Assembly (NCBI RefSeq): GCF_028473645.1
Contig: NZ_CP097269.1
Location: 5,603,501 to 5,667,500, forward strand
DNA from: Acidovorax sp. GBBC 1281
GTDB taxonomy: Bacteria > Pseudomonadota > Gammaproteobacteria > Burkholderiales > Burkholderiaceae_C
Length of the DNA stretch: 64,000 nt
Direction of reading: 5' to 3'
Positions 21,723 to 38,129 of this stretch are shown here, piece by piece. Both the position numbers and the translations under genes were made by a program. The notes under the pieces are model-generated. The model worked only from the letters and a program-made list of their open reading frames with translations. It ran no database searches and was not told the origin of the DNA. The number at the start of each line of letters is the position of its first letter. The first letter of the stretch is position 1.

Positions 21723-24700
21723 ATGCCAACAGCCACTTTCCTGTCCGCTGGCCTTCTGAGCGTGCCGCCCAAGGCCGCTCCCGTGGGCAAACGCCTGGAA
21801 GCGCTGCGCGCCTGCGCGGTGCTGGACACCCCGGCGGAAGAGGCGTTCGATCAGCTGACCCGGCTGGCCGCCCGCCTGTGCGGCATGCCCATGGCGGCGA
21901 TCGGTTTCATCGACCAGGGGCGCGAGTGGTTCAAGGCCAGCACCGGCATCGAACTGCAGTCGCTGGATGCGGCCCACCCGCTGTGCACGCTGGCGGTGGA
22001 CGGCCGGGTGGTGCAGGTGCAGGACACGCACGCCCATTCCACGCTGCGCCGCCATCCGCTGGTGATCGCCGGGCCGCGCGTGCGCGCCGTGGCCTGCATG
22101 CCGCTGATCACCGCGGAGAAATGGGTGCTGGGCGCCGTGGTGGTGATGTCCACCGAGCCGTGCGTGCTGCAGCCGCCCCAGCTCGAATCGCTGCGCGCGG
22201 TGGCCGGGCAGGCCATCGCCCTGCTGGAGCTGCGCCGCAGCCAGCGCAACCAGGCGCGCATGGCCACCGAGCGGGCCGCCAGCGACGAGCGCTTTCACCT
22301 GGTGGCGCGCGCCACAGCCGACGCCATCTGGGACTGGAACCTGCACGACGACTCCATGTGGTGGAACGAGGGCATGCAGACGCTGTTCGGCGTGCCGATG
22401 CAGACCCTGCCGCACGACAGCACGTCGTGGACGCTTCGGCTGCACCCGGAAGACAGCGACGCGGTGCTGGAGAGCATCCACGCGGCGATCGAGGGCACGG
22501 CCAAGCACTGGGCCGAGGAATACCGCTTTCGCCGCTACGACGGCAGCTACGCCTGGGTGCAGGACCGCGGCTTCGTGATCCGCGACGCCGAGGGCCGCGC
22601 GGTCCGCATGGTGGGCGGCATGACCGACATCAGTGCGCAAAAGGACAGCGCGCTGCAAGCCAAGGACGAGGCCCGCACCCACGCCGAGCTGGTGCGCGTG
22701 CAGCAGAAGATTTCGTCGCTCGAACTGTCCATGGACGAGGTGTTGCAGCTGGTGGCCCGCACCGCGATGGAACTGTCCGATGCGGGCGGTGCGATGGTGG
22801 TGATGCGCGAAGGCGACAAAGCCCGGGTGCAGGCCAGCACCGGCATGCGCGCCGTCCCGCTGAACGACGTGCGCCCGCTGGAAGGCTACGAGCTGTGGCA
22901 CCGCATCGACGCGGGCGAGACCGTCTGCAGCCAGCCGGCCGTTGCCCAGGCCATGCCCTCGGCCGCCCTGTGCGAGCCGGGGCCGGTGGCCTTCATCGCG
23001 GCGCCGGTGCGCGCGGGCGATGCGGTGGTGGGCATGCTCAAGGTCAACGGCGACCCGCTGGCATCGTTCTCGCAGCGCCACCTGGCGCACGTGCAGATCC
23101 TGGCCGAGTCGCTGGGCGCCGTGGTGCAGCTGCGGCGCTATGCCGCGCAGCTGCACGCGTCCGAGCAGCAGTACCGCCTGCTGTTCGATGCGCACCCGCA
23201 GCCCATGTGGGTGTACGAGCTGGGCACCCTGCGCATCCTGGCCGTCAACCGGGCCATGGTGCGCCACTACGGGTACAGCGAGGCGGAACTGCTGTGCATG
23301 ACCACGCCCGACCTCTGGCCGCAGGACAACCGCGAAGCCCGCACCCGGGAGGCGCACACCATTCCCCACAATGCCCGGCGCGACGCCGTGCACCGGCGCC
23401 ACCGCAAGAAGGACGGCACGGTGATCGACACCGAGGTGTACGCCGGGGGCATCGAATTCAACGGCGTGCCCGCCCGCCAGGTGCTGGCCACCGACGTCAC
23501 GCAGCGCATGCGCCTCGAACGGGAGCTGGCGCGGGTGGGCAGCATCCAGCGGCTGCTGGCCGCCTGCAACGAATCGCTGGTGCGCGCGACCTCCGAGGCC
23601 GACCTGCTGCGCGAGGTCTGCCGCATCGCCACGGACGTGGGCGGCTACCGGATGGCCTGGGTCGGCATGGTGCGCGACGATGCGCGCCAGAGCATCGAGC
23701 CCGTGGCCTGCGCAGGCAAGGACAGCGAAAGTTATATCGAAAGGCTCCAACTGAGCGGGTCGGCCGACCAGCCGGGCGGCCAGGGCCCGGCCGGGGTGGC
23801 GGTGCGCAGCGGCCGGCCGGTGATCGTGCGCGACATCCGGCTCGACCCGCTGTTTGCCACCTGGACCGAGCGCATGCTCCGGCAGGGCCTGCACTCGGTA
23901 ATCAGCCTGCCGCTGCGCAACGCCGAGCGCTCCTTCGGCCTGCTGTACCTGTATCCGCCGGGCGTGCTGGAGATCGGCTCCGAAGAAACCGAGCTGCTGC
24001 AGCAACTGGCCAACGACCTGGCCTTCGGCATCGAGAGCCTGCGCACCCGCCAGGACCAGCAGCGCCTGCAAAGCGTGGTGCTCAAGGCCGCCGCCGCCAT
24101 CTCGGCCAGCACGGGGACCGAATTCTTCAAGCAGCTGGCCAGCAACATGGCGGAAGCGCTGGGCGCACAGGCCGGCTGCGTGACCCGGTTGCTGCCGCCG
24201 GTGGAGGGGCAGCCGCCGCGCGCCATCACGCTTTCGCGCGTGCAGGACGGCGTGGTGCAGCCCAATGCCGAATATTCGCTGGAAGGCACGCCCAGCCTGC
24301 GTCTGGCGACCGATGCGGAATACGTCGTCACCTCCGGCGTGTCCGAGATGTATCCGCGCTCGCCCATCGCGGCGCTGGGCGCGCAAAGCTACGTGGGCCA
24401 GCAATTGCGTGACGCCGAAGGGCGGCCGATCGGGCTGATCTTCGTGATCTTCCGCGAGCCGCTGGAGCGGCCGGCCCTGGTTTCCTCCACCTTGCGCATC
24501 TTCGCGGCGCGCGCCACCGCCGAAATGGCCCGCCAGGCATCGGACGCCCACATCCGGCGCCAGGCCTCGCTGCTGGACAAGGCCCGCGACGCCATCATCG
24601 TGCGCGACCTGAAGCACCGCATCACGTTCTGGAACCAGGGCGCCGAGCGCATGTACGGCTGGTCGCAGGCGCAGGTGCTGGGCCGCACCATCGACACGCT

Positions 24701-26225
24701 GCTCTACCAGAACGCCACCGAATTCCTGCGCGCCACCGAGGCCACCCTGGCCCAGGGCGAGTGGGCGGGCGAGATCGTGCAGTTCCACCAGGACGGGCAT
24801 GCGATCGATGTGGAAGGCCGCTGGACCCTGGTGCGCGACGAGGGCGGCCAGCCCGAATCCATCCTGGCCATCCACACCGACATCGGCCACCGCAAGGCCA
24901 CCGAGCGCGAGATCCAGCGCCTGGCGTTCTTCGACTCGCTCACCGGCCTGCCCAACCGCATGCTGCTCATGGACCGCATGCACCAGGCCCTGGCCACGGC
25001 GCAGCGCCAGCGCCAGGGCGGGGCGCTGCTGTTCATCGACCTGGACAACTTCAAGACGCTGAACGACACGCTGGGCCACGACAAGGGCGACCTGCTGCTG
25101 CAGCAGGTGGCGCAGCGCCTGAACACCTGCGTGCGCACCGTCGATACCGTGGCGCGGCTGGGCGGCGACGAGTTCGTGGTGATGATCGAGGCGCTCAGCC
25201 CCCGGCCCGACGAACTGGCCGTGAGCGCCCGCGTGGTGGGCGAGAAGATCCTGTCGGTGCTGAGTGCCCCCTATGCCCTGGACGGCTACCAGTACCGCAG
25301 CACGCCCAGCATCGGCGTCGCCCCGTTCACCGACGGCCAGTCCACCGTGGGCGAGCTGCTCAAGCAGGCGGACCTGGCCATGTACCAGGCCAAGACCGCC
25401 GGCCGCAACACCCTGCGCTTTTTCGACCCCGGCATGCAGGCCGTGGTGACGGCCCGGGCCGCGCTGGAAGACGACCTGCGCACGGCGATCGCCCGCGAGG
25501 AATTCCTGCTGCACTACCAGCCCCAGGTGGACACGATGAACCGCGTGGTCGGGGTGGAGGCGCTGGTGCGCTGGCCGCATGCCAAGCGGGGCATGGTGCC
25601 GCCGGGCGATTTCATTCCGCTGGCCGAGGAAACCGGTCTCGTGCTGCCCCTGGGCCGCTGGGTGCTGCACACCGCCTGCACCTTGCTGGCCAGCTGGCAG
25701 GACGAGCCCTCCCTGTCGCACCTCACCATGGCGGTGAACGTGAGCTCGCGCCAGTTCCACCACGCGGGCTTCGTGGACGACGTGGTGCGTGCGCTGGTGT
25801 TCACCGGGGCGCCGGCCGACCAGCTCAAGCTGGAGCTGACCGAGAGCCTCTTCGTGGACGACATGGAGACCACGATCGCCACCATGTCGGCGCTGCGCGC
25901 CCATGGGGTGGGTTTCTCGCTGGACGACTTCGGCACCGGCTACTCTTCCCTGAGCTACCTCAAGCGCATGCCGCTGGACCAGCTCAAGATCGACCAGAGC
26001 TTCGTGCGCGACCTGCTCAGCGATCCCAACGATGCGGCCATCGTGGACACCATCATCGCGCTCTCGCGCAGCCTGGGCCTGAACGTCATCGCCGAAGGCG
26101 TCGAGACCGGCGCCCAGCGCAACCGCCTGGCGCAGGCGGGCTGCCAGCTCTACCAGGGCTATTTCTTCAGTCGGCCGCTGCCGGCCGACGTGCTCGAGCG
26201 CTTCCTGCGGAACGCGCTCGTCTGA
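21723..26225 (+). CDS. Large multi-sensor GGDEF-EAL cyclic-di-GMP protein
   Basis: This 1500-residue, apparently soluble protein has no membrane segment. In order it shows a GAF domain (~25-165), PAS (~185-305), GAF (~325-475), PAS (~485-600), two further GAF-like regions (~615-770 and ~780-945), PAS (~955-1065), GGDEF (~1075-1235) and EAL (~1250-1495). The cyclase motif is intact (RLGGDEFVVM). So are the phosphodiesterase motifs (GVEALVRW, DDFGTGYSSLSYL, KIDQSFV, IAEGVET), so both activities are possible. The many sensor modules suggest integration of several cytosolic signals. It is followed by the origin-like non-coding region. Confidence 0.9.
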   Translation: MPTATFLSAGLLSVPPKAAPVGKRLEALRACAVLDTPAEEAFDQLTRLAARLCGMPMAAIGFIDQGREWFKASTGIELQSLDAAHPLCTLAVDGRVVQVQDTHAHSTLRRHPLVIAGPRVRAVACMPLITAEKWVLGAVVVMSTEPCVLQPPQLESLRAVAGQAIALLELRRSQRNQARMATERAASDERFHLVARATADAIWDWNLHDDSMWWNEGMQTLFGVPMQTLPHDSTSWTLRLHPEDSDAVLESIHAAIEGTAKHWAEEYRFRRYDGSYAWVQDRGFVIRDAEGRAVRMVGGMTDISAQKDSALQAKDEARTHAELVRVQQKISSLELSMDEVLQLVARTAMELSDAGGAMVVMREGDKARVQASTGMRAVPLNDVRPLEGYELWHRIDAGETVCSQPAVAQAMPSAALCEPGPVAFIAAPVRAGDAVVGMLKVNGDPLASFSQRHLAHVQILAESLGAVVQLRRYAAQLHASEQQYRLLFDAHPQPMWVYELGTLRILAVNRAMVRHYGYSEAELLCMTTPDLWPQDNREARTREAHTIPHNARRDAVHRRHRKKDGTVIDTEVYAGGIEFNGVPARQVLATDVTQRMRLERELARVGSIQRLLAACNESLVRATSEADLLREVCRIATDVGGYRMAWVGMVRDDARQSIEPVACAGKDSESYIERLQLSGSADQPGGQGPAGVAVRSGRPVIVRDIRLDPLFATWTERMLRQGLHSVISLPLRNAERSFGLLYLYPPGVLEIGSEETELLQQLANDLAFGIESLRTRQDQQRLQSVVLKAAAAISASTGTEFFKQLASNMAEALGAQAGCVTRLLPPVEGQPPRAITLSRVQDGVVQPNAEYSLEGTPSLRLATDAEYVVTSGVSEMYPRSPIAALGAQSYVGQQLRDAEGRPIGLIFVIFREPLERPALVSSTLRIFAARATAEMARQASDAHIRRQASLLDKARDAIIVRDLKHRITFWNQGAERMYGWSQAQVLGRTIDTLLYQNATEFLRATEATLAQGEWAGEIVQFHQDGHAIDVEGRWTLVRDEGGQPESILAIHTDIGHRKATEREIQRLAFFDSLTGLPNRMLLMDRMHQALATAQRQRQGGALLFIDLDNFKTLNDTLGHDKGDLLLQQVAQRLNTCVRTVDTVARLGGDEFVVMIEALSPRPDELAVSARVVGEKILSVLSAPYALDGYQYRSTPSIGVAPFTDGQSTVGELLKQADLAMYQAKTAGRNTLRFFDPGMQAVVTARAALEDDLRTAIAREEFLLHYQPQVDTMNRVVGVEALVRWPHAKRGMVPPGDFIPLAEETGLVLPLGRWVLHTACTLLASWQDEPSLSHLTMAVNVSSRQFHHAGFVDDVVRALVFTGAPADQLKLELTESLFVDDMETTIATMSALRAHGVGFSLDDFGTGYSSLSYLKRMPLDQLKIDQSFVRDLLSDPNDAAIVDTIIALSRSLGLNVIAEGVETGAQRNRLAQAGCQLYQGYFFSRPLPADVLERFLRNALV

Positions 26226-26440
26226 TCTCTTTCCTCTGACAGCCCCTGGCAGGCCCCTGCCGGGCGGCTGGGCGGCCCTCCACGCGCCGGGTGGGCCCTC
26301 CCCCCCTTCCTCCCCCTGCCTCCGCTGTGCCGAAGGCCTCTGGCGCCTTCCTGCGCCACGAGCGTCTCGTTCTGCCACACCTCCTGGCCATCCGGGGCGG
26401 GCCGCGGGCGACGGTTTTTTCTGTCTTCTCCTTAATGTCT

Positions 26441-26489
26441 TTATCAATCCATAGTAGTCGTAGTAAGCACGGTTTCCCTTTGTGGACAA
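26441..26489 (-). other. DnaA-trio-like run plus DnaA box, module A
   Basis: TTATCAATCC is followed by TAG TAG TCG TAG TAA (26452-26466), 14 nt, then TGTGGACAA (26481-26489). Read on the minus strand this is DnaA box TTGTCCACA, spacer, CTA/CGA-type triplets, then AT-rich DNA. That is the order described for the basal origin-unwinding system, in which DnaA spreads from the box along the trios. Confidence 0.65.
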
Positions 26490-26600
26490 CTGCATTTTTC
26501 CGTTGCGGATCAACGGACTTGCGATGCCGTGAACCTTGTGGGCGGCACCCGGCTCCCGCTGTCGCGGCGGCGGGGACAAAACCGGCGCATCGCCTTTCGC

Positions 26601-26637
26601 TGTGGACAAGTGGCCGGTTGTGCGGGAAATATCCACA
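26601..26637. other. Two further DnaA boxes, module A
   Basis: TGTGGACAA (26601-26609) and, in the opposite orientation, ATATCCACA (26629-26637). Each differs by one base from the consensus TTATCCACA or its complement. The next site in module A, TTGTTCCCG at 26641, is degenerate where module B has a good box. Confidence 0.65.
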
Positions 26638-26921
26638 GACTTGTTCCCGTGGCCGCCCTCTTTCCACCCGTTGGCGCGAAAGCGGCCCCCTTCCGGGCGA
26701 TGTCGCCAGGTCCGACACCTGCCGACCATGGATCGGGCGCAGCCCGTCGATCGGACGGCGAGGCGTTCGCCCCTTTCTTCTTTTTCTTTCCCTTCCCTTT
26801 TTCTTTTCCCACGGCGGGCGGGATGCCTTCGTTTTGCGCCGGGCCCGGGTGGCCTCGGACAAGGAGCGCGGCGGTCGGTTTTTCGGCGGCCCGGAGGTTC
26901 TTTGTTATTCCATTAAAGGTT

Positions 26922-26970
26922 CTATCAATACATAGCAGTAGTAGTAGAGGAGCCCTGTTTCTGTGGACAA
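26922..26970 (-). other. DnaA-trio-like run plus DnaA box, module B
   Basis: CTATCAATACA is followed by TAG CAG TAG TAG TAG (26933-26947), 14 nt, then TGTGGACAA (26962-26970). The spacing from the last triplet to the box is exactly as in module A. On the minus strand the order is box, GC-containing spacer, CTACTACTACTGCTA, AT-rich DNA. Confidence 0.7.
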
Positions 26971-27079
26971 GGCCGATTTCCTCAACGCTGCCAAGCACTT
27001 GGATGGCCGTAAACCCTGTGGCGCCGGCCGGGTGAACCGGCATGCCGGGCGACAACAACTTTGGCGCATCGGTATCTTC

Positions 27080-27128
27080 TGTGGATAACCCATGGGTTGC
27101 TCTGGAAATGTCCCCAGGCTTGTCCACA
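27080..27128. other. Two further DnaA boxes, module B
   Basis: TGTGGATAA (27080-27088), a perfect consensus box on the minus strand, and TTGTCCACA (27120-27128) on the plus strand, flanking a degenerate site ATGTCCCCA (27108-27116). Confidence 0.7.
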
Positions 27129-27154
27129 ATGTGCTCCGGATCGGCATCGGCCAA

Positions 27155-27180
27155 AGAAAAAAGGGCCCCGAAGGGCCCTT
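27155..27180 (-). terminator. Terminator of pagL
   Basis: AAGGGCCC (27161-27168) pairs with GGGCCCTT (27173-27180) around a CGAA loop. In the leftward direction it is followed by TTTTTTCTTT. It separates pagL from the origin-like region. Confidence 0.85.
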
Positions 27181-27206
27181 GTTGGCATGGATGAAGCAGG
27201 CAGGGA

Positions 27207-27788
27207 TCAGAAGTGGTACGCGTAGCGCAGCTGCACGAAGTTCTCGCCCGGGTTGGGCTTCTTGATGCCCGCGTTGGACAGGTGCTGCACCCGCAGCACG
27301 ATCTCGTGCTGGCGCTGCGCGCCCAGGCTGTAGCCCACGCCCAGGTGGGAGCCGAAGTTGTAGCGGGTGCTGAACTCCTTGTCGGGGGTGTGGTACTTGC
27401 GGTCGGCATACGTGATGCCGACGCCCCCTTCCCAGAACCAGTTGGCACTGCCGTTGTCCAGGCGCAGGCGGAAGGTGGGCGTGAAGCCGACCACGGTCAG
27501 GTCGCCCGAGCCGTTGACCCCGTTGTACGACCAGCGGCTGGCGGAAATGTCCCAGTAGCCGCGCACTTCATGGCCCCACAGCTCGCTCTGCCAGTTCCAG
27601 GGCAGCGTCACGCCCACAGCGGCGGAATTGGTCTGGTGTTCTGCCCAGCCGCCCTGCACGTAGACGGACGGGCTGGTGCCCGAAGGCTGAGCGTGAACGG
27701 CGCCCGCGCCGGCGACGCAGGCCAGCGCCAAGAAAAAAGCGTTCCCGCGCAACAGGGCGCGGGAACGCAGGAGGTGGATGATCGGCAT
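27207..27788 (-). CDS. pagL: Lipid A 3-O-deacylase PagL
   Basis: This 193-residue outer-membrane beta-barrel has a signal peptide (LALACVAGAGAVHA, cleavage near 34). The C-terminal half carries the PagL active site: VQHLSNAGIKKPNPGENF holds the His-x-Ser pair and the acidic residue. It ends in aromatic F (RYAYHF), as outer-membrane barrels do. PagL removes the 3-position acyl chain of lipid A. GAGGGAA upstream of 27788 fixes the start; the frame extending to 27944 has no support. Confidence 0.87.
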   Translation of the reverse strand: MPIIHLLRSRALLRGNAFFLALACVAGAGAVHAQPSGTSPSVYVQGGWAEHQTNSAAVGVTLPWNWQSELWGHEVRGYWDISASRWSYNGVNGSGDLTVVGFTPTFRLRLDNGSANWFWEGGVGITYADRKYHTPDKEFSTRYNFGSHLGVGYSLGAQRQHEIVLRVQHLSNAGIKKPNPGENFVQLRYAYHF

Positions 27789-27962
27789 GGAAATTCCCTC
27801 GATGGGATGACTGTGGGTTTGCACAACGTGTGTAACCCACTGTATGCCGCCCATCGGGGGGTGCGTTGTAGGCAGTCGCCTCAACCGTACTGATCGGTCG
27901 GGATCTGACCGGAGGGTATGCAGGGATGTCCAGACTGTGCGCAAACCCCCCGGACCGATCGC

Positions 27963-28916: not shown

Positions 28917-29921
28917 GTGTTCAAGAACATGATCGTGTACCGCATCGCGCCGCAGTGGCAGGTGGACCTGTCGCAGGTGGAAGAGGCGCTGGCCAAGACG
29001 CCGTTCGTGGAGTGCGGCGCCACGCAGGAAAAATCGCTGGGCTGGGTGCCGCCGCGGGGCGACGCGCACGGCCTCATGGCCGAATCCGTGGGCGGGCAGT
29101 GGGTGCTGCGCTTCATGGTCGAGTCCAAGATGCTGCCCGGCTCGGTGCTCAACCGCAAGGTCAAGGAAAAGGCCGCGCGCATCGAGCAGGAAACCGGCCG
29201 CAAGCCCGGCAAGAAGGAAGCCAAGGAGCTCAAGGACGAGGCCAAGCTCGACCTGCTGCCCATGGCCTTCACCAAGCAGGGGTCGATGTGGGTGTGGATC
29301 GACCCGCAGGCCCACTGGCTGGTGCTGGACACCAGCAGCCAGTCGCGGGCCGACGAGGTCGTCACGCTGCTGGTCGAGGCGCTGCCCGGCCTGTCGGTGG
29401 CGCTGCTCGATACGCAGACCTCGCCCCAGGCCGCCATGTCGCACTGGCTCAGCACGCAGGAGCCGCCCGTGGGCTTCAGCGTGGACCGCGAGTGCGAGCT
29501 CAAGAGCGCCGACGAGGCCAAGGCCGTGGTGCGCTATGCCCGCCATCCGCTCGACATCGACGAGGTGCGCGAGCACATCGCCGCCGGCAAGCTGCCCACC
29601 AAGCTCGCGATGACCTGGGACGATCGCGTGTCGTTCCTGCTGAGCGAAGGCCTGCAGGTGCGCAAGATATCGTTCCTGGACACGGTGTTCGAAGGCACCA
29701 AGGCCGATGACGGCGGCTTCGATACCGACGTGGCCATCGCCACGGGCGAGCTCAGCAAGTTGATTCCCGACCTGATCGAGGCGCTGGGCGGCGAAGGCCG
29801 CACCGAACTGGGCGGCACGCCCCCGGCAGCGCCGGCGGCCGACACTGCCGCCCCTGCGCCTTCGAGCAGCCCTGCTGCCGTGGCGGCCAACGGTGCCGAA
29901 GACGACGACGCACCGTTCTGA
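28917..29921 (+). CDS. rdgC: Recombination-associated protein RdgC
   Basis: This 334-residue protein is typical RdgC from its first residues (MFKNMIVYRIAPQW), with the GWVPPRG motif near 40 and the C-terminal domain containing HPLDIDEVREHI and ISFLDTVFEG. RdgC forms a ring dimer on double-stranded DNA and restrains RecA. Translation starts at a GTG with GAAGGA 6 nt upstream. The C-terminus carries a disordered Pro/Ala/Ser tail ending DDDAPF, which is similar in style to the SSB tail. Confidence 0.93.
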   Translation: MFKNMIVYRIAPQWQVDLSQVEEALAKTPFVECGATQEKSLGWVPPRGDAHGLMAESVGGQWVLRFMVESKMLPGSVLNRKVKEKAARIEQETGRKPGKKEAKELKDEAKLDLLPMAFTKQGSMWVWIDPQAHWLVLDTSSQSRADEVVTLLVEALPGLSVALLDTQTSPQAAMSHWLSTQEPPVGFSVDRECELKSADEAKAVVRYARHPLDIDEVREHIAAGKLPTKLAMTWDDRVSFLLSEGLQVRKISFLDTVFEGTKADDGGFDTDVAIATGELSKLIPDLIEALGGEGRTELGGTPPAAPAADTAAPAPSSSPAAVAANGAEDDDAPF

Positions 29922-31061: not shown

Positions 31062-31074
31062 TACCATGCCGGCC
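31062..31074 (+). promoter_or_regulatory. -10-like element of the spmAB fusion gene
   Basis: TACCAT (31062-31067), 7 nt (GCCGGCC), then the ATG at 31075. The spacing equals that at copA, nudJ, mnmA and aroG. Confidence 0.4.
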
Positions 31075-32328
31075 ATGGCGCTCAACTGGGTCTGGATCGG
31101 GTTCTTCACCGTGGCGTTCGCCACGGCCGTCGTGCGCTGGCTGCTGGGCGCGGACGGCATCTTCCAGGCCTTGCTGGCCGCGCTGTTCGATGCGGCCCGC
31201 TCGGGCTTCGAGATCTCGCTGGGCCTGGCCGGCGTGATGGCGCTGTGGCTGGGCCTGCTGCGCGTGGGCGAGCGCGCCGGCATGATCGAGCTGCTCGCCC
31301 GCGCCGCTGCCCCGCTGCTGCGCCGGCTGTTCCCCGGCGTGCCCGACGGCCACCCGGCGCAGGGCGCGATGACCATGAACCTCTCGGCCAACCTGCTGGG
31401 CCTGGACAACGCCGCCACGCCGCTCGGCCTCACGGCCATGCGCGAACTGCAGACCCTCAACCCCGGCCCGCCCGACACCGCCAGCAACGCGCAGATCATG
31501 TTCGTGGTGATGAACACCGCGGGGCTCACGCTCATTCCCACCTCGGTCATTGCCATCCGCCAGAGCCTGGCCCTGAAGCAGGGGTTGGGCGCGGGCTTCA
31601 ACGCGGCGGACATCTTTTTGCCGACGCTGCTGGTCACCTTCGCGTCGCTGCTGGCGGGCGTGCTGGCCGTGGCCGTGTGCCAGCGCCTGCCCCTGTGGCG
31701 CGCGCGCTTTCTGCTGCCCGTGCTGGCCGTGGCCGGGCTGCTGGCGGCGGCGGTCACTGCGCTCGCCCGGTTGCCGGCCGAGCAGGCCGCGCGCATCGCC
31801 GGCACCACCGGAGCGGCGGTCATCCTGGGCGTGGTCATGCTCTTCGTGCTGGCGGGCGCCGTGCGGCGCGTGAACGTCTACGACGCCTTCATCGAAGGCG
31901 CCAAGGAAGGCTTCGGCGTGGCGGTGCAGATCGTGCCCTACCTCATCGCCATCCTCGCGGCCATCGGCGTCTTCCGCGCCGCGGGCTGCATGGATGCGCT
32001 GCTGGGCGCCATCGGCGCGGGCGTGGCGGCGATGGGCTGGGACACCGCGTTCCTGCCGGCCCTGCCCGTGGGGTTGATGAAGGTGCTTTCCGGCGCCGGC
32101 GCGCGGGGCCTGATGATCGATGTCATGCAGACGCACGGCGTCGATTCCTTCGCCGGCCGCCTGGCTGCCATCGTGCAGGGATCGACGGAAACCACCTTCT
32201 ACGTGCTGGCGGTGTACTTCGGCAGCGTGGGCATCCGGCACGCGCGGCATGCGCTGGCGTGCGCGCTGGTGGCGGATGCGGTGGGGCTGGCGGCGGCGAT
32301 CGGGGTGGGGTACGCGATGCTGCGGTGA
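31075..32328 (+). CDS. SpmA-SpmB fusion (nucleoside-recognition/spore-maturation family) membrane protein
   Basis: This ~417-residue membrane protein's first ~200 residues match the SpmA-type domain (NLSANLLGLDNAATPLGLTAM, MNTAGLTLIPTSVIAIR). The second ~200 match SpmB (VNVYDAFIEGAKEGFGVAVQ, STETTFYVLAVYFGSVGIR). In Bacillus these are two proteins needed for spore core dehydration. In non-sporulating Proteobacteria the fused form is widespread and its substrate is unknown. An ATG at 31066 would add three residues, but it lies within the -10-like hexamer. Confidence 0.8.
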   Translation: MALNWVWIGFFTVAFATAVVRWLLGADGIFQALLAALFDAARSGFEISLGLAGVMALWLGLLRVGERAGMIELLARAAAPLLRRLFPGVPDGHPAQGAMTMNLSANLLGLDNAATPLGLTAMRELQTLNPGPPDTASNAQIMFVVMNTAGLTLIPTSVIAIRQSLALKQGLGAGFNAADIFLPTLLVTFASLLAGVLAVAVCQRLPLWRARFLLPVLAVAGLLAAAVTALARLPAEQAARIAGTTGAAVILGVVMLFVLAGAVRRVNVYDAFIEGAKEGFGVAVQIVPYLIAILAAIGVFRAAGCMDALLGAIGAGVAAMGWDTAFLPALPVGLMKVLSGAGARGLMIDVMQTHGVDSFAGRLAAIVQGSTETTFYVLAVYFGSVGIRHARHALACALVADAVGLAAAIGVGYAMLR

Positions 32329-32681: not shown

Positions 32682-33732
32682 GGCTTTGTTGCACAAATCG
32701 CGATGCTGATGCCCGTAGACTGACTGCGTGACAGAGACGAAGAACAGGCAGCGGAGCAAGTACCGCACGACGAACTGGAAGGCGTACAACGCGGCGCTGA
32801 AAGCGCGAGGCTCGTTGACGATGTGGCTAGATGAGGGCATGCAGTGGTTTGGCACGCCGACCGGCAGGCGTGGACGCAGCCGAACCTTCTCGGACGCAGC
32901 AATCCAGTTCTGCCTGAGCATCAAGTGCCTGTTCGGCCAGCCCTTGCGACAGGCGCTGGGCATGGTGCAGAGCCTGCTGCGGCTGGCAAAGCTGGACTGG
33001 CCGGTACCTGACTTCAGCACTGTTTGCCGGCGCCAAAAGACCTTGCAGGTCGAACTGAGCTACCAGCGAACCAACTCGCCGCTGCAGTTGCTGGTGGACA
33101 GCACCGGCATCAAGTTCCTGGGCGAAGGAGAGTGGAAACGCAAGAAGCATGGTGCTGAATACCGGCGCGAATGGCGCAAGGTCCATCTGGGCATCGACGC
33201 GCAGACGCTGGAAATACGCGCCATCGAGGTGACCAGCAACGCCATTGGGGATGCGCCGATGTTGCCCGGGTTGCTGGCTCAGATTCCCACTGACGAATCC
33301 ATCGAAAGCGTCAGTGCCGATGGCGCCTACGACACGCGCGCCTGCCTGGACGCCATTGCCGAGCGGCACGCGATGGCGGTGATCCCGCCCCGCAAGAACG
33401 CCAGCCATTGGAAGAAGTCGAGTCCGGGCTCGGCGCATCGTAATGAGGCCATTCGGGCGTGCCAGCGCCTGGGTCGCGGCATTTGGAAGAAGTGGAGCGG
33501 CTACCACCGGCGCAGCCTTGTGGAGACGAAGATGCACTGCTTCAAGCGACTGGGCGAACGGGTGATCGCGCGCACGTTCGACCGCCAGGTTGTGGAGCTG
33601 CATGTCCGCGTGGCCTTGCTCAATCGGTTCAGTCAGATCGGCCGTCCTCACACCGTGTCGGTGACTGCTGTGGCATAGGTCCGTCTGGGGTTGGGGTCAT
33701 GCCGTCTGCAATTCGATTTGTGCAACAGCGCC
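32682..33732 (+). mobile_element. IS5-family element, copy 2 (complete, 1051 bp)
   Basis: The 19-bp imperfect inverted repeats are the same as in copy 1, and the transposase is uninterrupted. The flanking 9-mers differ (GTATGGGGC on the left, CCGCCCAGT on the right), so this copy has lost its target duplication, most simply by recombination with another copy. It is the reference that shows the exact IS630 insertion point (TA at 32828-32829). Confidence 0.93.
32728..33678 (+). CDS. IS5-family (IS903-like) transposase, intact
   Basis: This 316-residue DDE transposase uses a GTG start. Asp is in LLVDSTGIKFLG, the second Asp in SADGAYDTRAC, and Glu in the Y-x-R-x-LVET-type signature RRSLVETKMHCFKRL. 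The N-terminal basic region is complete, unlike in copies 1 and 3. This could be the active source for the other copies. Confidence 0.9.
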   Translation: MTETKNRQRSKYRTTNWKAYNAALKARGSLTMWLDEGMQWFGTPTGRRGRSRTFSDAAIQFCLSIKCLFGQPLRQALGMVQSLLRLAKLDWPVPDFSTVCRRQKTLQVELSYQRTNSPLQLLVDSTGIKFLGEGEWKRKKHGAEYRREWRKVHLGIDAQTLEIRAIEVTSNAIGDAPMLPGLLAQIPTDESIESVSADGAYDTRACLDAIAERHAMAVIPPRKNASHWKKSSPGSAHRNEAIRACQRLGRGIWKKWSGYHRRSLVETKMHCFKRLGERVIARTFDRQVVELHVRVALLNRFSQIGRPHTVSVTAVA

Positions 33733-33830
33733 CCGCCCAGTTGATCCAGTGTCTGGTCGATGGCTATCCACAGGAATAATTCTTCCGGAGAAAGGTCGGC
33801 GAGGTTATGGTATTGATAAGTATTTGACAG
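33733..33830 (-). pseudogene. Possible gene start truncated by IS5 copy 2
   Basis: Leftward, an open frame encodes about 32 codons containing NLADLSPEELFLWIAIDQTL and runs into the IS right end. No ATG is in frame; a CTG at 33830 lies 5 nt after AAGGGAG. The peptide looks like genuine protein sequence, but I cannot name it. It may be the remnant of a gene displaced by the rearrangement. The rest of 33831-33926 is AT-rich promoter-like DNA. Confidence 0.3.
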
Positions 33831-33926
33831 GATGACTCCCTTTGTTATTGATCGTGCAGTATTTAATCATTAACCCATCCGATTATTTCGCTCTCCATTG
33901 TTGATTTTTTTCAGAAGAGAAAATTG

Positions 33927-34175
33927 ATGACCGACGCTCCGCAACGCCCCGACCTGCCCGACCACCTCTCCATCGACCCGCGCAGCCCGCACCATGTCGT
34001 CGCCGTGTTCGAGCACGACATCGGCATCCGCTTCAATGGCAAGGAGCGCTTCGACGTGGAGGAGTACTGCGTGAGCGGGGGGTGGGTGAAGGTGCCCGCG
34101 GGCAAGACGGTGGACCGCAAGGGCCGGCCGCTGATGATCACGCTCAAGGGCGCGGTGGAAGCGTTCTACAAATAA
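33927..34175 (+). CDS. DUF3297-family small protein
   Basis: This 82-residue protein has the conserved block DPRSPHHVVAVFEHDIGIRF and GWVKVPAGKTVDRKGRPLMI, characteristic of DUF3297. The function is unknown. The ATG at 33927 (rather than the preceding in-frame TTG) has AGAAGAG 6-7 nt upstream. GC content is normal for the genome, unlike the AT-rich leader. It is convergent with the STY0301-like gene. Confidence 0.8.
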   Translation: MTDAPQRPDLPDHLSIDPRSPHHVVAVFEHDIGIRFNGKERFDVEEYCVSGGWVKVPAGKTVDRKGRPLMITLKGAVEAFYK

Positions 34176-34198
34176 AAAATCCGCCGAGAAGGCGGATT
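34174..34198 (-). terminator. Terminator of the effector/immunity pair (convergent with the DUF3297 gene)
   Basis: AATCCGCC (34178-34185) pairs with GGCGGATT (34191-34198) around GAGAA. Leftward it is followed by a run of T (complement of AAAAAA). It may also weakly serve the rightward gene. Confidence 0.82.
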
Positions 34199-34220
34199 GT
34201 CTGGACCGGCGGTCCCGGCG

Positions 34221-34694
34221 TCACTCGCATTGAAAACGTACCTGTAGCACTGCCGGCTTGCCCGACTTGCGCGATACAACCGTACAGCGCTTCACCGCGT
34301 CATCCACGCGCTGCGCCATTCGCACCACGCCGCCAGCATAGTCGCAGGAAAGGAACTTGCCCTGTGAGTAATCTCCTTCGAAAGTCCATACGGCGGTAGA
34401 GCCGCCTTTGCCGGGCTTATCTGACTGTGGCATCAACGCGGCCTCACGAATGAGAGGACCATCGAAGACGTTGTAGCCGGTCAGCCTCAGGGGATTCGCG
34501 TCCAGCACGATTTCCGCGCCTGCGGGCAGGCTGGATGCAGAAGCCCGTGGCTCGTTGAGCTGTACTGTAGGGGGACATTCCAGCGTGGTAGAAGCAGCTA
34601 CAGCTGTATTTGGCATACCTGTTACCGCGAAAATGACCACGGCAAGAGCCGTGGACCAGCCGGGTGAGCGGCGTAGGAGGCAGGCTGACGTCAT
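34221..34694 (-). CDS. STY0301-family periplasmic protein, probable immunity protein
   Basis: This 157-residue protein has a signal peptide (ALAVVIFAVTGMPNTAVAAS) and two cysteines able to form a disulfide (FLSCDYAGG, KRCTVVSRK), with ECPPTVQLNEP after the signal. It resembles the STY0301 family. It lies 22 nt downstream of a BPSL0067-like amidase-type gene on the same strand. A periplasmic partner downstream of a murein-directed enzyme is the layout of type VI effector/immunity pairs. The immunity role is inference. Confidence 0.68.
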   Translation of the reverse strand: MTSACLLRRSPGWSTALAVVIFAVTGMPNTAVAASTTLECPPTVQLNEPRASASSLPAGAEIVLDANPLRLTGYNVFDGPLIREAALMPQSDKPGKGGSTAVWTFEGDYSQGKFLSCDYAGGVVRMAQRVDDAVKRCTVVSRKSGKPAVLQVRFQCE

Positions 34695-34716
34695 AGAAAT
34701 CCCATCGTTGTCGTCG

Positions 34717-35121
34717 TCATTCGATTACGGAATACGCCGCGGCGTTATTGCTGGCGTCAGTGAAGACTCCATTTTTGCTTTGGGGCTTGGGAGTCAAGTA
34801 GCGTTTTGACACCTTGGGCTTTTTCACATCGCTCAACCATTGATCCATGATCCAGATGCCACCAGCATCCTGGGAGATGAAGAACGCCGCATGATTGCCC
34901 GTGGGCAGGCTGCCGTAGTGGCCCTTGCTGTTGAATGTGGCGATGGCTGTGCCTTGCTTGATATTGGCATTACCAAATACCGTTTCACCTTTCTTCCAAA
35001 TGCTGGTGTGGGGCACGTTCGCATAATACTGAAGTAGCGCCACGCAATGCTTGCTGCCAACCTTGTCGGTGTTCTGAAGCGACAAGACACTTTGGTAGAT
35101 ATAAGGCATCGTTTTTGTCAT
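34717..35121 (-). CDS. BPSL0067-family NlpC/P60-like protein, probable type VI secretion amidase effector
   Basis: This 134-residue protein has no signal peptide. It has a putative Cys-His-Asp arrangement: KHCVALLQYY (Cys near 24), GNHAAFFISQ (His near 74) and IWIMDQW. These fit the papain-like fold of small murein amidases (Tae-like effectors), and lack of a signal fits injection by a type VI system. No secretion genes are in the window. Its upstream DNA is cut at 35193 by IS5 copy 3. Before the inferred inversion it would have lain directly downstream of the thiolase gene. Confidence 0.65.
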   Translation of the reverse strand: MTKTMPYIYQSVLSLQNTDKVGSKHCVALLQYYANVPHTSIWKKGETVFGNANIKQGTAIATFNSKGHYGSLPTGNHAAFFISQDAGGIWIMDQWLSDVKKPKVSKRYLTPKPQSKNGVFTDASNNAAAYSVIE

Positions 35122-35184
35122 CACATAAAAGAGAGGATCTTAAAAGGGATCCTGTAGCTTTCCGCAGCTATTTCCAACGGTTGC

Positions 35185-35193
35185 AATCACACC
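35185..35193. repeat. Other half of the IS5 target duplication (complement of GGTGTGATT)
   Basis: AATCACACC abuts the right terminal repeat of the inverted IS5 copy 3 and is the exact complement of the 9 bp at 3120-3128 on the left of copy 1. Confidence 0.85.
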
Positions 35194-36098
35194 GGCGCTG
35201 TTGCACAAATCGAATTGCAGACGGCATGACCCCAACCCCAGACGGACCTATGCCACAGCAGTCACCGACACGGTGTGAGGACGGCCGATCTGACTGAACC
35301 GATTGAGCAAGGCCACGCGGACATGCAGCTCCACAACCTGGCGGTCGAACGTGCGCGCGATCACCCGTTCGCCCAGTCGCTTGAAGCAGTGCATCTTCGT
35401 CTCCACAAGGCTGCGCCGGTGGTAGCCGCTCCACTTCTTCCAAATGCCGCGACCCAGGCGCTGGCACGCCCGAATGGCCTCATTACGATGCGCCGAGCCC
35501 GGACTCGACTTCTTCCAATGGCTGGCGTTCTTGCGGGGCGGGATCACCGCCATCGCGTGCCGCTCGGCAATGGCGTCCAGGCAGGCGCGCGTGTCGTAGG
35601 CGCCATCGGCACTGACGCTTTCGATGGATTCGTCAGTGGGAATCTGAGCCAGCAACCCGGGCAACATCGGCGCATCCCCAATGGCGTTGCTGGTCACCTC
35701 GATGGCGCGTATTTCCAGCGTCTGCGCGTCGATGCCCAGATGGACCTTGCGCCATTCGCGCCGGTATTCAGCACCATGCTTCTTGCGTTTCCACTCTCCT
35801 TCGCCCAGGAACTTGATGCCGGTGCTGTCCACCAGCAACTGCAGCGGCGAGTTGGTTCGCTGGTAGCTCAGTTCGACCTGCAAGGTCTTTTGGCGCCGGC
35901 AAACAGTGCTGAAGTCAGGTACCGGCCAGTCCAGCTTTGCCAGCCGCAGCAGGCTCTGCACCATGCCCAGCGCCTGTCGCAAGGGCTGGCCGAACAGGCA
36001 CTTGATGCTCAGGCAGAACTGGATTGCTGCGTCCGAGAAGGTTCGGCTGCGTCCACGCCTGCCGGTCGGCGTGCCAAACCACTGCATGCCCTCATCTA
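35194..36098 (-). mobile_element. IS5-family element, copy 3 (right 905 bp only)
   Basis: In inverted orientation this carries the same right end as copies 1 and 2 up to the IS630 insertion TA. The left ~146 bp of the IS5, expected beyond the IS630 copy, is absent and replaced by unrelated sequence from 37260. Confidence 0.9.
35248..36098 (-). pseudogene. IS5-family transposase fragment (C-terminal ~280 residues)
   Basis: The translation from an internal ATG at 36087 is identical to that of the C-terminal part of copy 1. The N-terminal ~35 codons are missing altogether here, because the IS5 left end has been lost. Confidence 0.85.
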
Positions 36099-37190
36099 GT
36101 GTCCTGTCCCGTTAATTCGCCCGCATAGTCTGGCGAGTTTTTCGAGGATGGAGTCTGCTGTAGCTGTCCAAGTAAACGGCTGGCAGGACTGGTTGTAATT
36201 CGCGATGAATGTGTCGATCTTGTTGATCAGATCCTTCACGCTGGTGAACGAGCCACGGCGGATTGCCCGCGTGGTGATGATCGAGAAGAAGCGCTCGACC
36301 TGATTGAGCCAGCTTGAATAGGTCGGAACGAAGTGCATGTGCCAGCGAGGCCGCTCGGCCAACCAAGCGCGCACCTTTGGATGCTTGTGGCTGGCGTAGT
36401 TATCAGCTATGCAGTGCACATCCAGTTCGTCGGGCACTGCCTTGTCGATGGCGCGCAGGAAGGCAAGGAACTCTTGATGACGATGCCGGGGCCGGCACTG
36501 CGCGATCACTTGGCCATTCATCACGTTCAGGGCCGCGAACAAGGTGGTGGTGCCGTGGCGCACGTAGTCGTGCGTGACACCTTCGACATAGCCAAACCCC
36601 ATTGGCAGCATCGGCTGCGTACGCTCCAAAGCTTGGCATTGGCTCTTCTCGTCCACGCACAGCACCAGCGCGTTGTCAGGTGGGTTCAGGTACAGCCCCA
36701 CAACGTCGCGCAGCTTCTCGATGAACAGCGGATCGGTCGACAGCTTGAAGCTGTCGGCCCGGTGCGGCTTGAGGTTGAAGGTCTGCAGATAGCGCGCCAC
36801 CGTGCTCTTGCTGATGCCCGTATCGGCGGCCAGCGTGCGGGTGCTCCAGTGGGTACCCCCATCAGCAGGCTTGGTGTGCAACGTCTTGGTAATCAACTCA
36901 GCAACACGCTCGTCATCTACCGTGCGGGGGCGACCCGGGCGCAACTCGTCGTAAAGCCCTGCAATGCGATGGCGCGCATAGCGCCCGCGCCACTTGGTGA
37001 CAGTGCTACGACTGATCCCCAGAGCCTGCGCAACCGCGGTGCTGGCTTTATCTGTGCCTTCGCAAGTCAGCACGATGCGCGCCCTGAGCGACAACGCCGC
37101 TGGCAGCGAACGTGATCGCGCCATGGACGTCAGTTCCGCGCGCTCCACTTCACTAAGCGCAATTTCTGTTCGGGTCGTTGCATTGGGCAT
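36096..37190 (-). CDS. IS630-family transposase, second copy
   Basis: The 364-residue translation is identical to that of the first copy, with both helix-turn-helix segments and the DDE residues intact. The stop codon again uses the TA outside the element plus a host G. Identical protein sequence indicates recent duplication. Confidence 0.9.
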   Translation of the reverse strand: MPNATTRTEIALSEVERAELTSMARSRSLPAALSLRARIVLTCEGTDKASTAVAQALGISRSTVTKWRGRYARHRIAGLYDELRPGRPRTVDDERVAELITKTLHTKPADGGTHWSTRTLAADTGISKSTVARYLQTFNLKPHRADSFKLSTDPLFIEKLRDVVGLYLNPPDNALVLCVDEKSQCQALERTQPMLPMGFGYVEGVTHDYVRHGTTTLFAALNVMNGQVIAQCRPRHRHQEFLAFLRAIDKAVPDELDVHCIADNYASHKHPKVRAWLAERPRWHMHFVPTYSSWLNQVERFFSIITTRAIRRGSFTSVKDLINKIDTFIANYNQSCQPFTWTATADSILEKLARLCGRINGTGH

Positions 37191-37257
37191 GGCGGCACCT
37201 CAAGGATGGCCCGAAACCATGCAGCTATCGTGCCTGCGAATTAACGGGACAGGACAC
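36099..37257 (-). mobile_element. IS630-family element, copy 2
   Basis: 1159 bp with the same 22-bp inverted repeats as copy 1, TA on both sides (36097-36098 and 37258-37259). One flank is IS5 and the other is unrelated DNA, so this is a recombinant or deletion junction rather than a simple insertion. Confidence 0.92.
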
Positions 37258-37259
37258 TA

Positions 37260-37574
37260 GCCCATGAAGCCCGCGAGGAAACTTGGACTGAGCGCGCGCC
37301 GTCCGGCAGCGATGCCCATCGCATGGAAGCAATCCAGCCGATGGACCAGGATAAGGTCAATAAACAATTACGCAAGATGCGGCTGCCGACTATCGGGCCG
37401 GAGTTGACTGCACACGCGCTCGCAGACACAACACTCAACAATCGCCTCTTCGATGTCCGGGTCGGCACGGACCCCAGCACCACTTATCAGAATGAAAGCA
37501 ATGGCAGTGCCTGGACATTCGACGACATCACTGAAGACCTGCTCGCGCACCAGGCGCAGGGCCGTCGCAGGTAA
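37260..37574 (+). pseudogene. C-terminal ~104 codons of an unrecognised protein, cut by IS630
   Basis: An open frame enters directly from the IS630 boundary (AHEAREETWTERAPSG...) and ends at TAA 37572-37574 after DDITEDLLAHQAQGRRR. It has protein-like composition but no start of its own. Nearby Tli3-like immunity lipoproteins suggest the tail of a type VI lipase-type effector. That is a guess from neighbourhood only. Confidence 0.45.
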
Positions 37575-37580
37575 GACCGG

Positions 37581-37726
37581 CTAACACGACGGGTCCACGA
37601 AGCGAGAACAGATGATGGCTGCGGCCAATGTGAGCACGGCTTGATGAATTTCGAGCCGCCTCTCGAATCGGATCCGCAGCTTTCCAAATCCAGCAACCCA
37701 AGCGTACTCGCTCACGGCGCAAGCGC
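37581..37726 (-). pseudogene. Remnant of another IS5-superfamily transposase (C-terminus)
   Basis: Leftward, ~45 codons read EYAWVAGFGKLRIRFERRLE and end AAAIICSRFVDPSC-stop. This is the typical tail of IS5-like transposases (the RIRFERR...IH...L..A.IICxRF pattern). It differs from the three copies described above. It abuts the stop codon of the Tli3-like gene, so it interrupts whatever followed. Confidence 0.6.
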
Positions 37727-37730
37727 TTCA

Positions 37731-38129
37731 TCAAGGCTTGGCGGGACACCCACTGGCAAGCGGTGGGTCGCCACATTCCGAGGGGATGCCCTCAAACACC
37801 ACTTCATTGCCTACGTACACCTTGTTGGTAGCGACTGGTGGATCAAGGTGCCAGTCGAACTGCCCTCCACCTTGAAGGTCCACGACTTCACTTTCTCGCA
37901 ACAGCGTTTTGGGCGAAACGCGATATAGCCGGACGACGAAAGGCATCCTGAAATCGCGGTGGACGATGCGCTGCAGGATCGATGCCTGATGGAACTCAAG
38001 GCGATAGATTTCATGAGGACTGTTGTAGCTGTACAGGAACGTAGGGGAAGTGGCGCGCCACCCCAAAACAACACAACCACCCAGCATCAGGCACCACACG
38101 ACACACGGGATTTTTTTCAAAGGGCGCAT
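37731..38129 (-). CDS. Tli3-like immunity lipoprotein
   Basis: This 132-residue protein has a lipobox-like signal (VVWCLMLGGC) and then SPTFLYSYNSPHEIYRLEF and SEVVDLQGGGQFDWHL...VYVGNEVVFEGIPSECGDPP, a pattern I associate with immunity proteins of Tle3-type type VI phospholipases. Its ATG overlaps the stop of an upstream paralogue (TGATG), so the genes were a tandem array. The start at 38129 is preferred over 38171 because only it gives a lipoprotein signal at the N-terminus. Confidence 0.6.
   Translation of the reverse strand: MRPLKKIPCVVWCLMLGGCVVLGWRATSPTFLYSYNSPHEIYRLEFHQASILQRIVHRDFRMPFVVRLYRVSPKTLLRESEVVDLQGGGQFDWHLDPPVATNKVYVGNEVVFEGIPSECGDPPLASGCPAKP

What the first reader, a model, noticed from the sequence alone, without database searches (positions are those of the whole stretch)
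26290..27130. Two tandem DnaA-trio/DnaA-box modules: a duplicated origin-like region away from dnaA
Seen: two diverged copies of one ~480-bp module, with landmarks offset by 479-481 bp. In each, an AT-rich stretch is followed by a TAG-trio run (26452-26466; 26933-26947), exactly 14 nt, then TGTGGACAA (26481; 26962). A second box follows ~120 bp on (26601; consensus TGTGGATAA at 27080), then boxes in the opposite orientation (26629 in A; 27120 in B). Where A has the box at 26629, B is degenerate (27108); where B has 27120, A is degenerate (26641). Each module starts with a polypyrimidine run. Known: bacterial origin unwinding uses a DnaA box next to trios spelled on one strand as CTA/CTG repeats, leading into AT-rich DNA. 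Inference: this is the chromosomal oriC, a second replicon origin, or a DnaA-controlled regulatory or titration site. No dnaA, dnaN, rpmH or gyrB lies in the window, and a duplicated trio unit is unusual.
Basis: partly seen in the sequence, partly recalled or inferred. Interest (0 to 1): 0.85.

Follow-up and report, generated by a model that had tools for sequence, protein, structure and literature searches.

The report
Twin-module chromosome origin far from dnaA
This is very probably the place where this bacterium starts copying its chromosome; unusually, it lies tens of kilobases from the initiator gene dnaA and holds two complete, separately conserved DNA-opening modules in tandem.

Summary
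Window 26290-27130 holds two tandem copies, about 480 bp apart, of one module: AT-rich stretch, TAG-trio run, 14 nt, TGTGGACAA, and a second same-strand box 118-120 bp on. The best reading is the main chromosome's oriC, about 65 kb from dnaA.

Evidence: (1) A profile of the module hits 181 of 200 family genomes. (2) In 8 of 8 genomes read for it, a matching module lies between dnaA and dnaN, so the window's locus looks like a relocated oriC. (3) parS lies nearer the module than dnaA in 15 of 15 genomes. (4) A GC-skew switch is significant in 5 of 9 genomes sampled, each time nearer the module than dnaA; the window's own genome is only suggestive, and G104 (not significant) points nearer dnaA. 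(5) It lies between convergent genes, which argues against a promoter site.

What is unusual is the twinning. Copies A and B form separate lineages across Acidovorax and Paracidovorax, and the inverted third box is in 36 of 36 B but 3 of 38 A copies. Other genera keep two or three modules kilobases apart. Whether both copies open DNA is untested.

The parts
26412..26451 (+). Module A: AT-rich stretch (candidate unwinding element)
   Evidence: 34.5% GC over 26412-26466; conserved in A1
26452..26466 (+). Module A: DnaA-trio run TAG TAG TCG TAG TAA
   Evidence: conserved columns in A1
26481..26489 (-). Module A: DnaA box 1 (TTGTCCACA on the minus strand), 14 nt from the trios
26601..26609 (-). 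Module A: DnaA box 2, +120 from box 1, same orientation
26629..26637 (+). Module A: inverted box with one mismatch (ATATCCACA), +148; such a site at +146 to +148 is in 4 of 38 A copies
26893..26932 (+). Module B: AT-rich stretch (candidate unwinding element)
   Evidence: 34.5% GC over 26893-26947
26933..26947 (+). Module B: DnaA-trio run TAG CAG TAG TAG TAG
26962..26970 (-). Module B: DnaA box 1, 14 nt from the trios
27080..27088 (-). Module B: DnaA box 2 (TTATCCACA), +118, same orientation
27120..27128 (+). Module B: inverted DnaA box 3, +158; present (at most one mismatch) in 36 of 36 B copies mapped
21723..26225 (+). Left neighbour: PAS/GAF/GGDEF/EAL protein, 3' end facing the modules; a relative of this gene was recognised in 7 of 20 module regions of other genomes
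27207..27944 (-). Right neighbour: PagL-like protein, 3' end facing the modules, so the modules lie between convergent genes
28917..29921 (+). rdgC, part of the neighbourhood shared with some other genera
31066..32328 (+). Gate-domain (nucleoside recognition) gene; in some other genera a second module follows this gene, here none is found

Best explanation
The region is oriC of the main chromosome. DnaA binds the high-affinity boxes; from box 1 a DnaA filament is guided across the 14-nt spacer onto the TAG-trio strand (3'-GAT-5' read away from the box), stretches the adjacent AT-rich DNA and opens it for helicase loading, as in the basal unwinding system (BUS) known from Bacillus subtilis. It lies about 65 kb from dnaA, most likely because an origin that other genera keep between dnaA and dnaN was relocated. 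It contains two complete modules, A and B, from an old duplication; B keeps the architecture also seen in many copies of other genera (boxes at 0, about +119, inverted about +159), while A has mostly lost the inverted box and is either a second opening site or a helper of B. Shown: the anatomy, the conservation, the two places in the family, parS proximity, and skew switches in some genomes. Inferred: DnaA binding, unwinding, origin firing, the direction of relocation, and the division of labour between A and B.
For: Sequence and box enrichment. Module DNA found in 16 of 16 other same-genus genomes and 3 of 7 other same-family genomes. Spacer 14 nt in 36 of 36 copies although 12-16 was allowed. 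Profile R1 hits 181 of 200 family genomes. A module between dnaA and a Pfam-confirmed dnaN, with a second box 117-119 bp from the first, in 8 of 8 genomes read for this. parS nearer the module than dnaA in 15 of 15 genomes: 11-50 kb against 67-285 kb. GC-skew change points with few permutations reaching them: G178 1 kb from the module, G050 8 kb, G007 19 kb, G023 2-5 kb, G058 46 kb (0, 2, 3, 9, 13 of 500), each 86-196 kb from dnaA; the window's genome 24 kb from the modules and 90 kb from dnaA, 31 of 500. dnaA's flanks in the window's genome show two box-like sites and no trio run. Convergent flanking genes; no sigma-70-like promoter site in 26220-27210.
Against: In the window's own genome the skew step is weak (31 of 500 permutations) and its best place is 24 kb from the modules; a k=4 profile puts it at 5.654 Mb instead of 5.608 Mb. 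Three of nine genomes give no significant step: in G047 the best place is 106 kb from the module, in G104 it is 155 kb from the module and nearer dnaA (106 kb), and in G020 a step of the opposite sign at dnaA fits better than the best origin-like step. Permutation treats 5-kb windows as independent. 19 of 200 family genomes show no hit, and DNA similarity was found in 0 of 16 other-family genomes of the order. In other genera the best-fitting spacer is 14 nt in only 23 of 39 copies and 11-20 nt in the rest. The 14-nt spacer is slightly beyond the 10-13 bp peak reported for BUS elements, though within that study's 16-bp limit. No DnaA binding, marker-frequency or autonomous-replication data exist here.
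Confidence: 0.89

Rival explanations
1. Only module B fires; module A is a degenerated or repurposed copy that titrates DnaA or tunes initiation, comparable in role to datA or DARS sites of E. coli (comparison recalled). This and the next rival both keep the region as oriC.
For: B keeps the inverted box 3 in 36 of 36 copies while A has a site at +158/159 in 3 of 38 and at +146 to +148 in 4 of 38. B groups with most module copies found beside the GGDEF gene in other genera.
Against: A keeps the AT-rich stretch, trios, 14-nt spacer and box 2 (38 of 38) across the clade, which a pure binding sink would not need.
Confidence: 0.4
2. A and B are both active opening sites of one origin, giving redundancy or separate helicase loading.
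For: A and B are separate lineages; both were found in 36 of 38 genomes mapped. 46 of 55 named loci have two or more modules, 0 with mixed orientation. Twin modules also occur between dnaA and dnaN in G094, G205 and G190, and in another family, G030 and G268.
Against: No functional data; 119 of the 181 family genomes with a hit show only one (hand count of the table, strict filters), so one module seems to suffice there.
Confidence: 0.45
3. The true oriC is next to dnaA and the twin modules are only a distal DnaA-binding site.
For: dnaA has one perfect box and one near-box in its upstream region; many bacteria have oriC beside dnaA (recalled; also stated in PMC4403523); in G104 the non-significant skew step lies nearer dnaA.
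Against: No trio run next to either box and no box in the dnaA-dnaN gap of the window's genome. The five significant skew switches lie nearer the modules than dnaA. parS is nearer the modules in 15 of 15 genomes.
Confidence: 0.06
4. It is the origin of an integrated plasmid or second replicon.
For: It lies tens of kilobases from dnaA; an IS element lies nearby.
Against: Part of the neighbourhood (GGDEF/EAL, pagL, rdgC, Gate gene) is shared with 12 of 20 module regions of other genomes, and the module itself is family-wide.
Confidence: 0.02

Closest known systems
Basal unwinding system (BUS) of bacterial oriC: DnaA box(es) plus DnaA-trios, Bacillus subtilis type (PMC8287927: found passages and part 1 of 2 of the results section read; PMC10721633: one passage read)
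   Same: DnaA box followed, on the opposite strand, by 3'-GAT-5' trios and AT-rich DNA; spacer within the 16-bp limit of the published search.
   Different: Two complete tandem copies; spacer of 14 rather than the reported peak of 10-13; far from dnaA; a second box at about +119 and, in B, an inverted box at about +159.
E. coli oriC (recalled)
   Same: An origin some tens of kb from dnaA, with an AT-rich element on one side of a box array.
   Different: Different neighbouring genes, motifs and spacing; a single unwinding element.
Bipartite origins of B. subtilis and Helicobacter pylori, and predicted double origins such as the hemE and dnaA regions of Ralstonia pickettii (PMC4403523, part 1 of 2 read)
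   Same: More than one DnaA-box cluster assigned to one chromosome's origin.
   Different: There (recalled for the first two) the parts are unequal and lie around dnaA, or are predictions from boxes and skew; here two homologous full modules sit in one intergenic region and persist as separate lineages.

Membership tests
Bacterial chromosomal oriC | Cluster of DnaA boxes in a non-coding region | tested here: met
   between genes ending at 26225 and 27207
Bacterial chromosomal oriC | AT-rich unwinding element beside the boxes | tested here: met
   34.5% GC arms in both modules
Bacterial chromosomal oriC | Switch of GC skew at the site | tested here: inconclusive
   Significant and nearer the module than dnaA in 5 of 9 genomes; own genome 31 of 500; 3 of 9 not significant, one of them nearer dnaA
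Bacterial chromosomal oriC | Proximity to parS centromere sites | tested here: met
   15 of 15 genomes: parS nearer the module than dnaA
Bacterial chromosomal oriC | Conservation across relatives, with matching modules at a classical oriC place | tested here: met
   181 of 200 family genomes; between dnaA and dnaN in 8 of 8 read
Bacterial chromosomal oriC | Initiation of replication in vivo (marker-frequency peak, essentiality, autonomous replication) | not testable with these tools
   No experimental data
BUS (DnaA box plus DnaA-trios) | At least three trios within 16 bp of a DnaA box | tested here: met
   14-nt spacer in both modules and in 36 of 36 nearest copies; criterion
BUS (DnaA box plus DnaA-trios) | DnaA-dependent strand separation needing box and trios | not testable with these tools
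   Needs purified DnaA
datA/DARS-like titration or regulatory site | DnaA boxes without an unwinding element (definition recalled) | tested here: not met
   Both modules have AT-rich DNA and trios
Plasmid or second-replicon origin | Own replication initiator gene beside it | tested here: inconclusive
   None among the 9 neighbouring proteins scanned, two of which match no family; the rest of the window was not scanned

The most novel reading that the evidence does not exclude
The modules are separately firing initiation sites, so that chromosomes of these Burkholderiales carry true multiple origins: tandem in Acidovorax and Paracidovorax, and spread over about 4-47 kb in other genera (for example three modules over 29 kb in G020), kept because two DnaA-opened sites give an advantage in initiation control or helicase loading.
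Probability: 0.25. Interest if true: 0.88.

Novelty: new variant of a known kind. Interest (0 to 1): 0.66.

Why it matters
It gives a testable origin for a large group of environmental and plant-associated bacteria, several of whose complete contigs here start at dnaA, and suggests that oriC moved away from dnaA within one family while keeping its architecture. The conserved twin modules offer a natural experiment on a long-standing question: whether a bacterial chromosome can use more than one opening site, and why most keep one. Copies kept as separate lineages, with spacing from 0.3 to tens of kb, make that question directly testable by deleting A or B.

Tried and rejected
Promoter or regulatory reading: rejected as the main reading because the region lies between two convergent genes and has no sigma-70-like site (the same scan found 7 terminator-like sites against 1.8 expected). 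Structured RNA: no Rfam match at gathering score in 20000-42000. A third module in the window: a full-sensitivity profile scan gives only A and B with E below 0.1; the next hits are box fragments. Other paired TTATCCACA sites of the genome (C1 451166/451490 and 3347900/3348035) show no TAG-trio run just before the boxes. GGGNAGGG as a polar marker was skewed between the arms but too sparse to place the switch. Skew at G020, G047 and G104 was not significant.

Literature: searches with Comamonadaceae, Acidovorax, Comamonas, Variovorax, Paracidovorax or Burkholderia plus oriC or DnaA-trio terms, and with tandem/duplicated oriC terms, listed no paper whose title or shown abstract start describes this origin or twin BUS modules. 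These were listings of an open-access library; of the listed papers I saw parts of PMC8287927, PMC4403523, PMC10225481, PMC10721633 and PMC11065298 only, and PMC2864759 and PMC10454023, which name relatives and oriC, were not opened. DoriC entries could not be consulted.

Full report
Check of the observation. Module A: AT-rich stretch, trios 26452-26466, 14 nt, TGTGGACAA at 26481, second box at 26601, inverted near-box at 26629. Module B: trios 26933-26947, boxes at 26962 and 27080, and an inverted TTGTCCACA at 27120. TTNTCCACA occurs 6 times in the window against 0.69 expected, and 0 of 100 shuffles reach 6. A and B align at 151 of 237 columns and 0 of 500 shuffles reach the score. The AT-rich arms are 34.5% GC. 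Read on the minus strand, each module is a DnaA box in forward orientation, a spacer, then CTA repeats, whose complement is 3'-GAT-5'; this agrees with the BUS described in PMC8287927 (passages and part 1 of 2 of the results section read).

Where it is. The window is C1:5603501-5667500 of a 5,695,567-base contig. The only DnaA C-terminal domain found is at C1:1084, and the ATG of its frame lies at about 5695508, so the modules are about 65 kb from dnaA. The dnaA upstream region has one TTATCCACA and one near-box, with no trio run beside them; the gap between dnaA and dnaN (Pfam-confirmed) shows no box. The modules lie between two genes whose 3' ends face them: a PAS/GAF/GGDEF/EAL protein and a PagL-like protein.

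Conservation. The module DNA was found in 16 of 16 other same-genus genomes, 3 of 7 other same-family genomes and 0 of 16 other-family genomes of the order. Of 20 loci from that search, 19 gave 36 modules with a script that allowed spacers of 12-16, and all 36 have 14; G022's locus gave none. An ungapped 99-column alignment of 32 of them became a sequence-only profile, R1. In a draw of 120 from the order 22 hit, three of them of the same family and most of the rest weak, but G030 and G268 of another family have tandem pairs 388 and 777 bases apart. Spacing in other genera is less rigid: of 39 copies the best-fitting spacer is 14 in 23, 15 in 6, and 11-20 in the other 10.

Names. A pattern scan of named genomes returned 55 stretches, mostly Acidovorax and Paracidovorax, with Simplicispira, Diaphorobacter, Giesbergeria and others. 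R1 finds two or more modules in 46 of these 55 loci, with 0 of mixed orientation; 43 of the 47 spacings are 325-1002 bases, the others 267, 1557, 3250 and 4047 (3 weakest of 105 hits left out). Four of the nine loci with one module have it within 250 bases of the locus end. The pattern fixed one module, so the presence of a second is the informative part.

Two lineages. In the tree, upstream copies (A) and downstream copies (B) fall apart by copy and not by genome, with Simplicispira metamorpha ambiguous. So the duplication is older than these species and both copies were kept without homogenising. Box 2 lies at +117 to +121 in 38 of 38 A and 36 of 36 B copies; the inverted box at +158/159 is in 36 of 36 B and 3 of 38 A copies; an inverted site at +146 to +148 is in 4 of 38 A and 3 of 36 B copies (at most one mismatch).

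Wider anatomy. In other genera the copies are often kilobases apart: about 4 kb in G173, G104, G172, G167 and others, 9 kb in G042 and G052, and 40, 49 and 69 kb along the contig in G020. In 20 regions fetched around such modules, 12 hold at least one relative of the window's neighbouring genes and 8 hold none; the GGDEF gene is recognised in 7. In G173, G104, G167, G172, G019 and G042 one module lies near the GGDEF or pagL side and another beside the Gate gene. In a tree of short sequences with modest support, most copies beside the GGDEF gene group with B and the copies after the Gate gene mostly group together, but the G104 and G209 copies beside GGDEF do not follow this. Most listed pairs share orientation; G076, G190 and G193 do not.

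Two places in the family. In 8 genomes picked because their hit lay beside dnaA, the module lies between dnaA and a Pfam-confirmed dnaN, with a second box 117-119 bp from the first. By coordinates alone 5 more look the same: G088, G113, G130, G195, G215. G094 and G205 have tandem twins there, about 310 bases apart, and G190 an inverted pair. Among the 15 genomes tabulated with a distant module its distance to dnaA is 39-260 kb; outside that table it is about 25-28 kb in some (G002, G009, G013) and about 459 kb in G090, which was not examined further. I infer relocation from the dnaA-dnaN place; no species tree was built to prove the direction.

parS. TGTTNCACGTGAAACA with up to one mismatch forms one cluster in each of 15 genomes, chosen mostly for having few contigs. 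The nearest parS is 11-50 kb from a module and 67-285 kb from dnaA; it is nearer the module in 15 of 15.

Skew. Nine genomes were sampled in 20-kb stretches and a one-step change from low to high fitted to 5-kb windows. Distances of the best step to module and to dnaA, and permutations of 500 that reach it: G178 1 and 100 kb, 0; G050 8 and 112 kb, 2; G007 19 and 110 kb, 3; G023 2-5 and 86 kb, 9; G058 46 and 196 kb, 13; the window's genome 24 and 90 kb, 31; G104 155 and 106 kb, 53; G047 106 and 244 kb, 173; G020 10 and 49 kb, 305. In G020 a step of opposite sign at dnaA fits better. K-mer profiles of the window's genome put the switch at 5.608 Mb for k=6-8 and 5.654 Mb for k=4, with only 16-18 of 23 training stretches classified correctly when left out. 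So skew supports the reading in five genomes, leans that way in the window's genome, and does not decide in three.

Mechanism. From established knowledge of BUS origins, box 1 would seed a DnaA filament that captures the trio strand across the spacer and opens the AT-rich DNA. That the modules are oriC is well supported; that both copies open is not shown. B keeps the fuller architecture and is the better candidate for the core; A may be a second opening site or a helper.

Known or new. An origin away from dnaA is known (E. coli, recalled), as are BUS elements, bipartite origins and predicted double origins (PMC4403523, part 1 of 2 read). Two complete homologous modules kept as separate lineages across a clade did not appear in the titles or abstract starts that my searches listed. 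I call it a new variant of a known kind.

Noticed in passing
window 32728-33678: A DDE transposase gene (IS element) lies just after the Gate gene, at the place where some other genera carry a second oriC module.
   Followed up: partly
window about 33000-38000: GC content falls to about 0.58-0.60 against about 0.70 in much of the window, possibly an acquired segment.
   Followed up: no
L001 (G000:C1:451166 and 451490): Two TTATCCACA boxes 324 bp apart in similar surroundings (TTTTCTGTGGATAACTTTGTTGA), without a TAG-trio run just before them; possibly another DnaA-binding locus.
   Followed up: partly
L007 (G000:C1:3347900 and 3348035): A repeat with 135-bp spacing holding TGTGGATAAC and GGTTATCCC elements; no trio run before the boxes.
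   Followed up: partly
L268 (G190:C1:2590001-2593000): Two modules in inverted orientation between dnaA and dnaN, unlike the tandem pairs elsewhere.
   Followed up: partly
L240 (G030:C1:5134001-5143000): A tandem pair of closely similar modules 388 bp apart in a genome of another family of the order.
   Followed up: partly
window about 26297-26325 and 26769-26811: Pyrimidine-rich runs precede both modules on the plus strand; meaning unknown.
   Followed up: no
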